From Mycoplasmataceae bacterium (GTDB taxonomy: Bacteria > Bacillota_I > Bacilli_A > Mycoplasmatales > Mycoplasmoidaceae), in NCBI GenBank assembly GCA_031284985.1, contig JAITWZ010000011.1, forward strand, positions 1-47,188: a stretch of 47,188 nt of DNA. Reading direction: 5' to 3'. The notes under the pieces are model-generated. The model ran no database searches, had not been told where the DNA came from, and was given only the letters and a program-made list of their open reading frames with translations. Below, in pieces: positions 5,485 through 46,468 of this stretch. The translations under genes and the position numbers were made by a program. Each line of letters begins with the position of its first letter. Positions within the stretch are counted from its first letter, which is position 1.

Positions 5485-5571
5485 GCTCAGATGGCGGAAT
5501 TGGCAGACGCAGTAGACTCAAAATCTACCGATGGAAACATCTTATGGGTTCAAGTCCCTTTCTGAGCACCA
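5485..5571 (+). tRNA. tRNA-Leu (CAA)
   Basis: Class II tRNA with an extended variable arm. The acceptor arm GCTCAGA pairs with TCTGAGC, the discriminator is A and CCA is encoded. Anticodon stem GTAGA/TCTAC closes the loop CTCAAAA, giving anticodon CAA. The T arm contains GGGTTCAAGTCCC. Confidence 0.96.
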
Positions 5572-5592: not shown

Positions 5593-5612
5593 ATTTAATT
5601 ATTTGTTACTAT
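5593..5612. repeat. 20-base direct repeat, left copy
   Basis: Identical over 20 bases to 6431-6450, where the copy forms the last codons and stop of secA. The two copies bracket the gene-free region that holds the RNA cluster, as expected for an insertion or a partial duplication of the secA end. Confidence 0.7.
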
Positions 5613-5784: not shown

Positions 5785-5790
5785 TATAAT
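5785..5790 (+). promoter_or_regulatory. -10 box of small-RNA unit 1
   Basis: TATAAT 17 bases before the conserved RNA core. The -10-to-core distance is nearly the same in units 3 and 4. Confidence 0.55.
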
Positions 5791-5796
5791 CAAAGT

Positions 5797-5840
5797 AAGG
5801 TTCGGGGACCTGCTAGAAATAGCTATCTAAGCCCCACTTG
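5797..5840 (+). ncRNA. Small structured RNA, family copy 1
   Basis: The hairpin at 5804-5835 has a GGGG/CCCC outer stem (5804-5807 with 5832-5835) enclosing the conserved core. The core holds an inner stem GCTA/TAGC capped by a GAAA tetraloop and an asymmetric internal loop, ACCT against TATCTAAG. Ends are approximate: the start is set about 7 bases after the -10 box, and no poly-T terminator follows. I do not recognise this as a known riboswitch or ribozyme. Confidence 0.55.
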
Positions 5841-5880
5841 TAATTTAATCAACATTGCAATATTTGTTCTGAAAATATTG

Positions 5881-5886
5881 TATAAT
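5881..5886 (+). promoter_or_regulatory. -10 box of small-RNA unit 2
   Basis: TATAAT preceded by AAATATTG. The same 14-base block (AAATATTG plus the -10) recurs before units 3 and 4 (there TATAGT), so the promoters are duplicates of each other. Confidence 0.55.
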
Positions 5887-5892
5887 TAAAGT

Positions 5893-6010
5893 GTCTAGGT
5901 TTGTCGGCTTGGTCCATAGGGGTTCCTGGAAAAACCGTCTATATACAATATTATTAGTAGTATACCTACGCCCCTCGTACGAGTTATTAAGTAGGCTTCT
6001 AAATAATGGT
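5893..6010 (+). ncRNA. Putative structured RNA of a different class (unit 2)
   Basis: It sits behind the same promoter type as the repeated family but does not carry the family core. Several helices are visible: AGGGG (5918-5922) with CCCCT (5971-5975) enclosing GGTT/AACC and ATAC/GTAT hairpins, then the self-complementary CTCGTACGAG at 5974-5983, which competes with the first helix. The region is noticeably G+C richer than its surroundings. No long ORF is present. Ends are guesses. Confidence 0.4.
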
Positions 6011-6063
6011 CTAATTTAATCAACGTTGTAACATTAATTCTAATATTTATTAAGAAAATATTG

Positions 6064-6069
6064 TATAAT
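6064..6069 (+). promoter_or_regulatory. -10 box of small-RNA unit 3
   Basis: TATAAT preceded by AAATATTG, 19 bases before the conserved core. Confidence 0.55.
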
Positions 6070-6075
6070 CAAAAT

Positions 6076-6122
6076 AAGGTTACGTGGGACCTGCTAGAAA
6101 TAGCTATCTAAGCCCCGCTCAT
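6076..6122 (+). ncRNA. Small structured RNA, family copy 3
   Basis: Its core at 6089-6112 is identical to copy 1 (24 bases). The outer stem differs in sequence but still pairs: GTGGG (6084-6088) with CCC (6113-6115), then a bulged C, then GC (6117-6118). Confidence 0.55.
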
Positions 6123-6166
6123 ATTTTAATCAACTTTATAATATAACATCTATTGTGTAAATATTG

Positions 6167-6172
6167 TATAGT
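6167..6172 (+). promoter_or_regulatory. -10 box of small-RNA unit 4
   Basis: TATAGT preceded by AAATATTG, 20 bases before the conserved core. Confidence 0.5.
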
Positions 6173-6178
6173 TAATGT

Positions 6179-6226
6179 AAGGCTTAGCTGGGCCTGCTAG
6201 AAATAGCTATCTAAGTCAGCCTTTTA
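6179..6226 (+). ncRNA. Small structured RNA, family copy 4
   Basis: The core at 6193-6215 is identical to copies 1 and 3 over 23 bases. The outer stem is again different but paired: GCTGG (6187-6191) with TCAGC (6216-6220). This copy ends in CCTTTT, the only one resembling a terminator. Confidence 0.55.
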
Positions 6227-6430
6227 AATGAAACATAAAAATAAATATCAATTTTTTCTATTGAAAATGATTTAATGGTTCTCTTCTATATCTAATGCGG
6301 ATTTTATAACCTTTCATGGGCAGATTCAACCCTAACATTTGAACAAGCACTTCTTCTTGTACTATAACAATAAAATTATATTTTATTGACTGAATGTACC
6401 ATTATTTTCCACACAAAATAGCAAGGAACC
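6227..6430. other. Gene-free stretch between the RNA cluster and secA
   Basis: About 200 A+T-rich bases without a supported gene, RNA or clear terminator. Only short open frames are present. Confidence 0.5.
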
Positions 6431-6450
6431 ATTTAATTATTTGTTACTAT
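6431..6450. repeat. 20-base direct repeat, right copy (secA end)
   Basis: Exact copy of 5593-5612. It covers the secA stop codon and last codons. Confidence 0.7.
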
Positions 6451-15767: not shown

Positions 15768-16394
15768 ATGAAGTATACTGCACGAGAAAAACACGCTAAT
15801 ATCATAAGCGATTTCTTAATTTTTCTAAATAAAGTAACAGACAAATTTGTTTTAAAAGGTGGTACAGCATTAGCAAAATGCTATAATCTCGATAGATTTG
15901 AGGATATAGACTTAGATAGTGAAAAAGGAAATATCACATCTATTGTAAAAAATTATTGCAAGTCAAAAAACTTTACGTATTGTGAAAAGAAAAATACTAG
16001 TTATGGTCAGAGATTTATGATCGATTATAAAGTTGATAGACAGTTATTAAAGGTAGAAGTAAGGCTAAATGAAAAAATCAACAAGGATGACGTATGTAAA
16101 ATTAATGGTATAATTGTTTATAAAATAAACAGATTAACTCTAATGAAATTGCAAGCGTATGATTCTAGAGATAAGATTCGTGATATGTATGATATTGCAT
16201 TCATTATCAATAACTACTGAGATTCTCTAAATGAGGTAATATGAAAAATAATAGCATTGAGTTTTGAAAATAAAGGTTTAGAACATTTTGATTATTTGAT
16301 AAAACAACAAAAAGATGACCTTATTGATACTAAAAATTTTTTAGAAAAAACATTAATTGCATTCAACAAAGTTGAAGAATTTAGCAGAAAGTAA
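15768..16394 (+). CDS. AbiEii/AbiGii-type nucleotidyltransferase toxin
   Basis: The 208-residue product has the family signature LKGGTALAKCY (GG at residues 31-32) followed by RFEDIDLD (acidic residues D46, D48, D50), the nucleotidyltransferase metal site. RDKIRDMYDIAFII is the conserved C-terminal part. A UGA at 16218-16220 is Trp (NNYWDSLNE). AbiEii proteins are toxins of type IV-like toxin-antitoxin and phage-abortive systems. The gene follows a small charged ORF and a transposase remnant, consistent with horizontal arrival. Confidence 0.85.
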
Positions 16395-44647: not shown

Positions 44648-46468
44648 TTACAGTTTTTTAAATCTTTCAATAATTGTATTAGCAATTGAATTATCATCTA
44701 AATTGTATCGTTCCATCAATGCATCATAAGGAATAAAATCAGTATATTCTTTTTTAGCTCCAAAATTTAAAACAACACGTTCTTTTTGTGAAGCATAATG
44801 TGCAAAAAATTTTTGACCAAATCCACCATCAACAATGCCATCTTCAATTGTCACAAGTAGTTGTCAATCTGATTTTATAGCAAGTGCGCCACTTAAAAAT
44901 AAAAAATTCACATTAGTGATGCTGCGTGGGTTGATTACTGTAACCTCACAACCAAATTTTTCCTTCACTATACGCGCAACATTAACTGCTTTCTTAAAAA
45001 ATTTCCCCAAACCAACAATTACTATATCATGACCTTGTTGATAGATTTCAGGTTTTAGCATAAAGGAAATGTTTGGATAAACAGCAGTGGTGTTTTTTAA
45101 TAATGATTTTGGCTGCTTAACTGTATTCAATTGGTACTCTAATGGTGGAATTTTTCTTTTATCTATTTCTGATTCATCGTCTTGACACACTCTTATTGCA
45201 ATAGGGAACTGTGCCTTTTTTGAAAATTCAAGCATCATTTTGTATTCGGCATCACAAGTTGGTGATAAGTAAACTAAATTAGGTATATTACTAAGCATAG
45301 CAATATCGTACATACTAACATGGGAATAATCAGATGTATAGATTCCACCACCAAATACCAACAAAGTAGCTGGTGTATTATTCATTGTTCAGTCTTGCAT
45401 AATTTGGTCATATGCTCTTTGAATAAATGAAGAAGCGGCACATATATATGCTTTTACACCAGATGCGGCTAAACCTGAAGCAACTGCTACTGCACTTTGT
45501 TCAGCAATACCAACATCAATATATCTTTCTGGACATTTTTGTTGTAGTGTTCTTCCAAATAAAGGAGTGCCAGGAACAACAGCAACGACATCTGGATTTG
45601 CCAAAATGAAGTCGATAGTTGAATCTGAGTCATTTTTATTTAAATCAGCTGTTTCACCAGTAACAGGATCAAATGGACTAACACGATAGTGTCACAACTC
45701 TGTGTGTTGCTCTGCATATGGTAGTCCTTTCCCTTTTTTATTATGCACATGGATAACAACAGGCTTTTGTATATCTTTAGCAATATTTAATGCATCTATA
45801 ACTTGTTGTACATCATTGCCGTCTTTAACATAATAATATTCAAAACCAAATGCTTTAAACAAATTTACAGGACTTTGTCCATTACTTGTACGTAATGCTT
45901 GTAAATTTCCATATAAACCACCAGCATTAGGGTCAATTGAAAATTCATTATCGTTTATAAGTAAAATGAAATTAGATTTTAAATACCCTGCAATATTTAA
46001 ACCTTCTAAAGCCTCACCACCAGATAATGAACCATCCCCTAATACGGCAATCACTTTATAGTTTTGCTTGCGAAAATCTCGTGCATAAGCTATTCCACAT
46101 GCTAGGGAAACTGAAGTGGAAGTATGTCCAACATTAAAATGGTCATGTGGGCTTTCTGTAATATTTGTAAATGGAGAGCAACCGTCTTGAATGTGGAAAT
46201 TTTTAAATAAATCAAGTCTACCAGTTAATAACTTATGTGGAATTGATTGGTGTGATACATCTCAAACAATTTTATCTTTTGGTGATTCAAACACATAGTG
46301 TAAGGCAATGGCGGTTTCAACAATACCAAAATTTGGTCCAACATGACCTCCAACTTTAGAGATTTTATCAAGCATAACAGTACGAATTTCACTCGCTACT
46401 TCTTTTAACTGAGTAATAGAGAGTTTTTTAAGATCTTCAGGATTTTGAATTTTGTCAAGATATGCCAT
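44648..46468 (-). CDS. dxs: 1-deoxy-D-xylulose-5-phosphate synthase (transketolase family)
   Basis: Makes DXP from pyruvate and glyceraldehyde-3-phosphate, the entry to the MEP isoprenoid pathway and to thiamine/pyridoxal synthesis. The 606-residue product has GGHVGPNFGIVETAIALHYVF, WDVSHQSIPHKLLTGR, the thiamine diphosphate motif VLGDGSLSGGEALEGLN...NDNEFSI, YIDVGIAEQSAVAVASGLA and TIEDGIVDGGFG. Length is slightly below the usual 620-640. Start is ATG 46468, 6 bases after a -10 box; another ATG lies at 46483. Confidence 0.92.

What the first reader, a model, noticed from the sequence alone, without database searches (positions are those of the whole stretch)
5785..6226. Tandem family of small structured RNAs with an invariant core and covarying stem
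Seen directly: three units (cores at 5808-5831, 6089-6112, 6193-6215) share an exact 23-base core containing GCTA-GAAA-TAGC. Each follows a -10 box at 17-20 bases. The outer stem differs each time yet still pairs: GGGG/CCCC, GTGGG/CCC(C)GC, GCTGG/TCAGC. Compensating change means selection on RNA structure and not just a DNA site. The core has a GAAA tetraloop and an asymmetric ACCT/TATCTAAG internal loop, which looks like a ligand- or protein-binding motif. I know no named RNA family with this core. Inference: roughly 45-base trans-acting RNAs or regulators.
Basis: seen in the sequence. Interest (0 to 1): 0.82.

Follow-up and report, generated by a model that had tools for sequence, protein, structure and literature searches.

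The report
Orphan RNA antidotes to a lost toxin
This gut mycoplasma-like bacterium carries several tiny folded RNA genes that match, in related species, the RNA antidote placed directly in front of an RNA-cutting toxin gene, but here the toxin gene is gone and only the antidotes, each with its own promoter, remain.

Summary
The three units are real (exact 23-nt core, no chance match expected) and the compensating stem is real. AGGU:ACCU (AGGC:GCCU in unit 3, UGGU:ACCA elsewhere) pairs across the GGGG strand, making an H-type pseudoknot with a hairpin in its last loop. A covariance model found relatives in the same uncultured Mycoplasmataceae genus. In three genomes the same RNA (two found by model, one by eye) lies 8-19 nt 5' of the start codon of a ToxN endoribonuclease (Pfam PF13958; predicted fold matches ToxN/AbiQ). 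[quoted passage not shown] Unit 3 is still followed by a relic of the toxin's first codons. No ToxN is detectable in this genome (82% complete). Three related genomes also keep such antitoxins without a cognate toxin. Two things differ from textbook type III systems: one pseudoknot per promoter instead of a tandem array with a terminator, and an extra hairpin. Other genera of the order have the classical array. Verdict: a new variant of a known kind, most likely orphan antitoxins kept as protection against incoming ToxN; that function is inferred, not shown.

The parts
5785..5790 (+). -10 box (TATAAT) of unit A1
   Evidence: sequence; conserved TATAATCAAA block, D5 repeat; no transcript data
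5798..5835 (+). unit A1: pseudoknot antitoxin RNA. P1 AGGT 5798-5801 / ACCT 5808-5811; PK GGGG 5804-5807 / CCCC 5832-5835; P2 hairpin 5812-5823; linker TATCTAAG 5824-5831
   Evidence: covariance model and pair counts
5881..5886 (+). further TATAAT box at the start of the A1-A2 spacer; what it transcribes is unclear
   Evidence: D3 repeat
5949..5954 (+). -10-like box TATTAT in front of unit B
5959..6004 (+). unit B: divergent, probably decayed antitoxin of the same plan. PK CCTAC 5965-5969 / GTAGG 5991-5995; P1b GCCC 5970-5973; P2 CTC GTAC GAG 5974-5983; tail CTTCTAAAT. P1a is weak here (AGT; GGT in the C47 copy)
   Evidence: 93% identical copy at G000:C47; reading of the sequence, no model support
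6064..6069 (+). -10 box (TATAAT) of unit A2
6077..6118 (+). unit A2: P1 AGGT 6077-6080 / ACCT 6089-6092; PK GTGGG 6084-6088 / CCCGC 6114-6118; P2 6093-6104; linker 6105-6113
6167..6172 (+). -10 box (TATAGT) of unit A3
6180..6220 (+). unit A3: P1 AGGC 6180-6183 / GCCT 6192-6195; PK GCTGG 6187-6191 / TCAGC 6216-6220; P2 6196-6207; linker 6208-6215
6221..6229 (+). CTTTTAAAT tail, the proposed ToxN cleavage site at the 3' end of the antitoxin
   Evidence: same position and motif in toxin-linked relatives; cleavage is inferred
6228..6275 (+). relic of the toxin gene start: MKHKNKYQFFLLKMI*, against MKHKNKYSIYTL of the intact ToxN in G273
   Evidence: tblastn 8/12 identical, E 2.6e-4 in a 260-bp search; DNA 63/87 identical from pseudoknot into the coding start, E 2e-11
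5593..5612 (+). left copy of a perfect 20-nt direct repeat that flanks the array, possible insertion scar
   Evidence: only these two copies in the genome with up to 2 mismatches
6431..6450 (+). right copy of the 20-nt direct repeat, overlapping the secA stop codon

Best explanation
Each unit is a promoter plus one antitoxin RNA of a type III toxin-antitoxin (ToxIN-like) system. In the complete systems of this genus, transcription starts at a 5' hairpin or directly at a pseudoknot. The pseudoknot has stem P1, whose loop pairs with a 3' strand; a hairpin sits between P1 and a conserved UAYCUAA linker. It is followed by a UAAAU-containing tail and, 8-19 nt on, by the AUG of a ToxN endoribonuclease. 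Proposed mechanism: ToxN cuts the transcript at the UAAAU tail, which frees the pseudoknot, and the toxin then binds it and is inhibited, as in ToxIN and CptIN. Cutting the toxin's own leader would also limit toxin synthesis. In this genome the toxin has been lost (a 12-codon relic follows A3) and the antitoxins persist as free-standing, promoter-bearing units with different pseudoknot helices. They most likely act in trans as protection against ToxN from incoming elements. Shown: the RNA fold by covariation, the linkage to ToxN in relatives, and the lack of a detectable toxin here. Inferred: transcription, cleavage at UAAAU, toxin inhibition, and the protective role.
For: Pseudoknot: on 9 relatives 95.5% of pair cells pair, 10 of 13 pairs change on both sides, covariation score 0.485 against 0.169 in shuffles (0/500), and sliding the partners destroys it. 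The A-type search found toxin-linked copies in G273 and G200, and a third was read in G114. The gene behind is ToxN: Pfam PF13958 1.6e-12, PADLOC AbiQ 2.4e-12, AlphaFold model best hits 4ato, 4glk, 2xd0 and 7d8o, all ToxN/AbiQ. A second kind of the same plan precedes ToxN in G203 and twice in G152. Toxin relic after A3. No toxin in the own genome by two searches, while the same profile finds toxins in the five toxin-bearing relatives at E below 1e-97 and none in G081, G194 and G269, which also carry such antitoxins. Core 23/23 identical against 50-72% identity upstream.
Against: No transcript or binding data. The genome is only 82% complete, so a toxin could be in the missing part. Published ToxIN antitoxins are tandem repeats with a terminator, and antiQ needs about 1.8 repeats (PMC5086642); the genus lacks both features. 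The GGU...ACC pattern and the pseudoknot alone would not prove an antitoxin; the case rests on the toxin linkage. Unit B fits poorly, and copies at C40 and C27 look decayed.
Confidence: 0.85

Rival explanations
1. Decaying remnants only: leftovers of dead toxin-antitoxin loci and their duplications, with no present function.
For: Toxin relic after A3; degraded copies at C40 and C27; unit B has a weakened P1; the MAG has no detectable toxin.
Against: The core is identical in three units although upstream flanks are only 50-72% identical. Helix changes are compensated in all three and in the C2 and C3 copies. Promoters are kept. Intact toxin-less copies exist in three other genomes.
Confidence: 0.3
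2. Antitoxins of a live system whose ToxN gene is encoded elsewhere in the cell (missing 18% of the genome, or a plasmid).
For: Completeness is 82%.
Against: No match in 824 kb by two sensitive searches. G081 is 94% complete and also has antitoxins but no toxin.
Confidence: 0.2
3. A metabolite-binding riboswitch or self-cleaving ribozyme with pseudoknot fold (fluoride- or pistol-like).
For: A compact pseudoknot with an extra hairpin looks like such RNAs (recalled, not tested by alignment).
Against: No relevant Rfam match even at E 10. The units in the window stand free of any gene, and the only repeated downstream gene in relatives is ToxN.
Confidence: 0.03
4. DNA repeats or mobile-element ends, or chance repeats, with no RNA role.
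For: Repeats in tandem; 20-nt direct repeats flank the array.
Against: Compensating changes in two interlocked helices over nine sequences; strand-specific order promoter, pseudoknot, toxin start.
Confidence: 0.02

Closest known systems
ToxIN type III toxin-antitoxin (Pectobacterium ToxIN, Bacillus thuringiensis ToxIN, Lactococcus AbiQ; PMC5086642, PMC8860590)
   Same: ToxN-family endoribonuclease downstream; antitoxin is an H-type pseudoknot of 36-45 nt; AAAU-type motif at the pseudoknot's 3' end
   Different: One pseudoknot per transcript instead of a tandem array; no terminator found between antitoxin and toxin in G273 and G200; an extra hairpin inside the pseudoknot's long loop; often a 5' hairpin; in this window no toxin and one promoter per unit
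CptIN of Eubacterium rectale (PMC4627078)
   Same: 45-nt H-type pseudoknot cut by its toxin; toxin and antitoxin pairs are highly specific
   Different: CptI is two tandem repeats with an unstructured A-rich loop L2; here L2 holds a hairpin. The toxin here matches ToxN/AbiQ better than CptN
Phage pseudo-ToxI of PhiTE (PMC3475682)
   Same: Antitoxin-like RNA without its toxin, able to act in trans against ToxN when expanded or recombined
   Different: Carried by a phage and made of tandem repeats; here chromosomal, single units with separate promoters
Orphan antitoxins as anti-addiction modules, described for type II protein antitoxins (PMC7354431)
   Same: Antitoxin kept without toxin, proposed to protect against incoming toxins
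   Different: Here the antitoxin is an RNA; I found no test of the idea for type III

Membership tests
Type III toxin-antitoxin (ToxIN) | ToxN-family toxin gene directly downstream of the RNA | tested here: met
   Met in relatives G273, G200 and G114. Not met at the window locus itself, where only a relic of about 12 codons remains
Type III toxin-antitoxin (ToxIN) | antitoxin folds as an H-type pseudoknot | tested here: met
   Covariation in both stems
Type III toxin-antitoxin (ToxIN) | antitoxin is an array of tandem repeats | tested here: not met
   TRF finds no antitoxin array before the ToxN genes of this genus, but 2.0-3.8 repeats of 40-43 nt in other genera of the order. The window's units are about 100-280 bp apart, each with its own -10 box
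Type III toxin-antitoxin (ToxIN) | Rho-independent terminator between antitoxin and toxin | tested here: not met
   None on the coding strand in G273 and G200, and only 8-19 nt between pseudoknot and AUG in G273, G200 and G114
Type III toxin-antitoxin (ToxIN) | toxin is a sequence-specific endoribonuclease that processes its antitoxin | not testable with these tools
   Fold and family only; the UAAAU tail suggests the site
Type III toxin-antitoxin (ToxIN) | antitoxin neutralises the toxin in vivo | not testable with these tools
   Needs a kill/rescue assay
Rfam families (all 4227) | score above the curated threshold | tested here: not met
   Only tRNAs matched; nothing relevant up to E 10

The most novel reading that the evidence does not exclude
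The genus keeps chromosomal collections of free-standing RNA antitoxins, with different pseudoknot helices and therefore perhaps different toxin specificities, as heritable protection against ToxN-bearing plasmids, phages or neighbours. This would be an RNA-antidote counterpart of anti-addiction modules, built from single-unit type III antitoxins that need no processing into repeats.
Probability: 0.35. Interest if true: 0.75.

Novelty: new variant of a known kind. Interest (0 to 1): 0.6.

Why it matters
Type III antitoxins have been recognised by their tandem repeats, which were part of the published search criteria (PMC5086642, PMC8860590). Single-pseudoknot antitoxins would be missed by such searches, so these systems, and free antitoxins above all, may be undercounted. 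The compensating helices among otherwise identical cores give a ready test of which part of the RNA sets toxin specificity. Recurrent toxin-less copies in four genomes make the open question of RNA anti-addiction directly testable.

Tried and rejected
Nested-only folds: no better than shuffles, so energy folding was dropped for covariation. Rfam at gathering score and at E 10: nothing relevant. Exact-core search in 297 other genomes of the order: nothing; only the structure model reached relatives. Riboswitch or ribozyme reading (fluoride- and pistol-like architecture) was considered from memory and rejected after the ToxN linkage. IMG/VR search for the toxin: no relatives. A toxin relic beyond the first 12 codons after A3 was looked for and not found. 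The 5' hairpin abutting P1 in toxin-linked copies is suggestive only: single-locus shuffles reach it in 11 to 135 of 500. Weak hits of the second model in G200, G155, G247, G213 and G229 were inspected and look like chance. The 46310-46349 match in the window (E 3.1) was dropped as chance.

Full report
Observation. The three copies of CCTGCTAGAAATAGCTATCTAAG are at 5809, 6090 and 6193 on the + strand, with no other match at up to 3 mismatches and none expected by chance. They lie between a tRNA-Leu gene and secA, which is read on the other strand, in a region without a plausible protein gene. The window belongs to an 824-kb, 82% complete genome. Related MAGs of the same genus are named uncultured Mycoplasmataceae, and the genes read well under genetic code 4.

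Structure. Unit 3 has AGGC:GCCT and a fourth copy in the same genome (C2, L008) has TGGT:ACCA. GGGG:CCCC becomes GTGGG:CCCGC, GCTGG:TCAGC and GAGGG:CCCTC. The two helices interlock, so the RNA is an H-type pseudoknot with a GCTA-NNNN-TAGC hairpin between P1 and the linker TATCTAAG. On four sequences from this genome four pairs change on both sides. On nine sequences ten of thirteen do, with 95.5% of cells paired and no shuffle reaching the covariation score. Plain energy folding cannot see this.

Relatives. A covariance model of the four copies found homologues in G273, G269 and G081 of the genus and, among the fetched loci, in G200; a refined model confirmed them and a fifth good copy, C3, in the own genome. 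In G273 the pseudoknot ends 8 nt before the ATG of a 208-aa protein that is a ToxN toxin by Pfam (1.6e-12) and AbiQ by PADLOC. Its AlphaFold model (pLDDT 74.6) has ToxN and AbiQ structures as its only strong PDB matches. In G200 and G114 the same plan stands 19 and 12 nt before ToxN: TGGT-TTCCGAG-ACCA, GTCAAAAGAC, TATCTAAG, CTCGG, and AGGT-CTACGTAT-ACCT, GCCCTTCGAGGC, TACCTAAA, TACG. The pseudoknot helices differ in sequence but all pair. A second kind with the same plan (TGGTT-GCCCA-AACCA, hairpin, TCGAAT, TGGG) stands before ToxN in G203 and twice in G152.

Toxin-less copies. G081 has one promoter-like box followed by a second-kind pseudoknot and an A-type pseudoknot with no toxin behind (L012). 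G194 has a second-kind copy in front of an unrelated gene. G269 has an A-type copy followed by no toxin. The cognate toxin profile finds toxins in all five toxin-bearing genomes at E below 1e-97 and none in G081, G194 or G269, nor in the own genome. G269 does hold a weak, different ToxN match elsewhere. The own genome has at least five well-formed copies (A1, A2, A3, C2, C3), unit B and its relative on C47, and two decayed copies. Behind A3 the DNA still matches G273 across the pseudoknot into the toxin start (63 of 87 bases), giving MKHKNKYQFFLLKMI-stop. The locus thus looks like a toxin-antitoxin locus that has lost its toxin. A perfect 20-nt direct repeat, present nowhere else in the genome at up to 2 mismatches, flanks the array and overlaps the secA stop codon, which suggests that the array arrived by insertion.

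How it differs from textbook systems. Type III loci have been defined by tandem repeats, one promoter and a terminator before the toxin (PMC5086642, PMC8860590). Other genera of this order do have such arrays (43 nt x 3.2, 40 x 3.7, 41 x 3.8, 43 x 2.0). In this genus no antitoxin array was found before any ToxN, and no terminator in G273 and G200. Instead the -10 box is followed after about 7 nt by a 5' hairpin or by P1 itself, and the pseudoknot's 3' end carries a UAAAU-containing tail (UUCUAAAU, UUUAAAUG). A single unit would need only one cut to be released, its 5' end being the transcript start. This is inference; the 5' hairpin is statistically only suggestive.

Function. The best-supported reading is an RNA antitoxin. 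Position and fold support the kind; activity is untested. Type III antitoxins are highly specific for their own toxin (PMC4627078), and expressed pseudo-ToxI or ToxI in trans can suppress ToxN-mediated abortive infection (PMC3475682). Free copies with conserved cores (23 of 23 identical against 18-26 of 36 upstream) and varied pseudoknot helices fit protection against incoming ToxN. Neutral leftovers and an unseen toxin in the missing 18% of the genome remain possible.

Verdict. Observation confirmed. A new variant of the type III antitoxin.

Noticed in passing
5593-5612 and 6431-6450: Perfect 20-nt direct repeat ATTTAATTATTTGTTACTAT flanking the antitoxin array; only these two copies in the genome; the right one overlaps the secA stop codon.
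   Followed up: partly
15768-16394: AbiEii-like protein (PADLOC 1.4e-55), toxin of a type IV abortive-infection system; its partner was not examined.
   Followed up: no
5881-5948: Stretch with its own TATAAT box and GTCTAGGTTTGTCGGCTTGGTCCATAGGGG between A1 and unit B; no role found. Its TATACAATATT (5942) is the inverted copy of the box region (16-nt inverted repeat).
   Followed up: partly
5841, 6012, 6122: Conserved TAATTTAATCAACNTT block after A1, unit B and A2, and also after the decayed C27 copy; not part of the pseudoknot, function unknown.
   Followed up: no
L012 1420-1540 (G081): Two different antitoxin kinds in tandem behind one promoter-like box and no toxin: a composite toxin-less antitoxin transcript.
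   Followed up: partly
L019, L020, L027: Other ToxN loci of the genus carry a third, different short leader (in L019 and L020 GGGGTAA...ACCC), in L019 and L020 followed by a terminator-like hairpin.
   Followed up: no
L010, L018, window 5485-5571: Several of these antitoxin copies lie next to tRNA genes (Ile, Ile-Ala, Leu), perhaps an insertion preference.
   Followed up: partly
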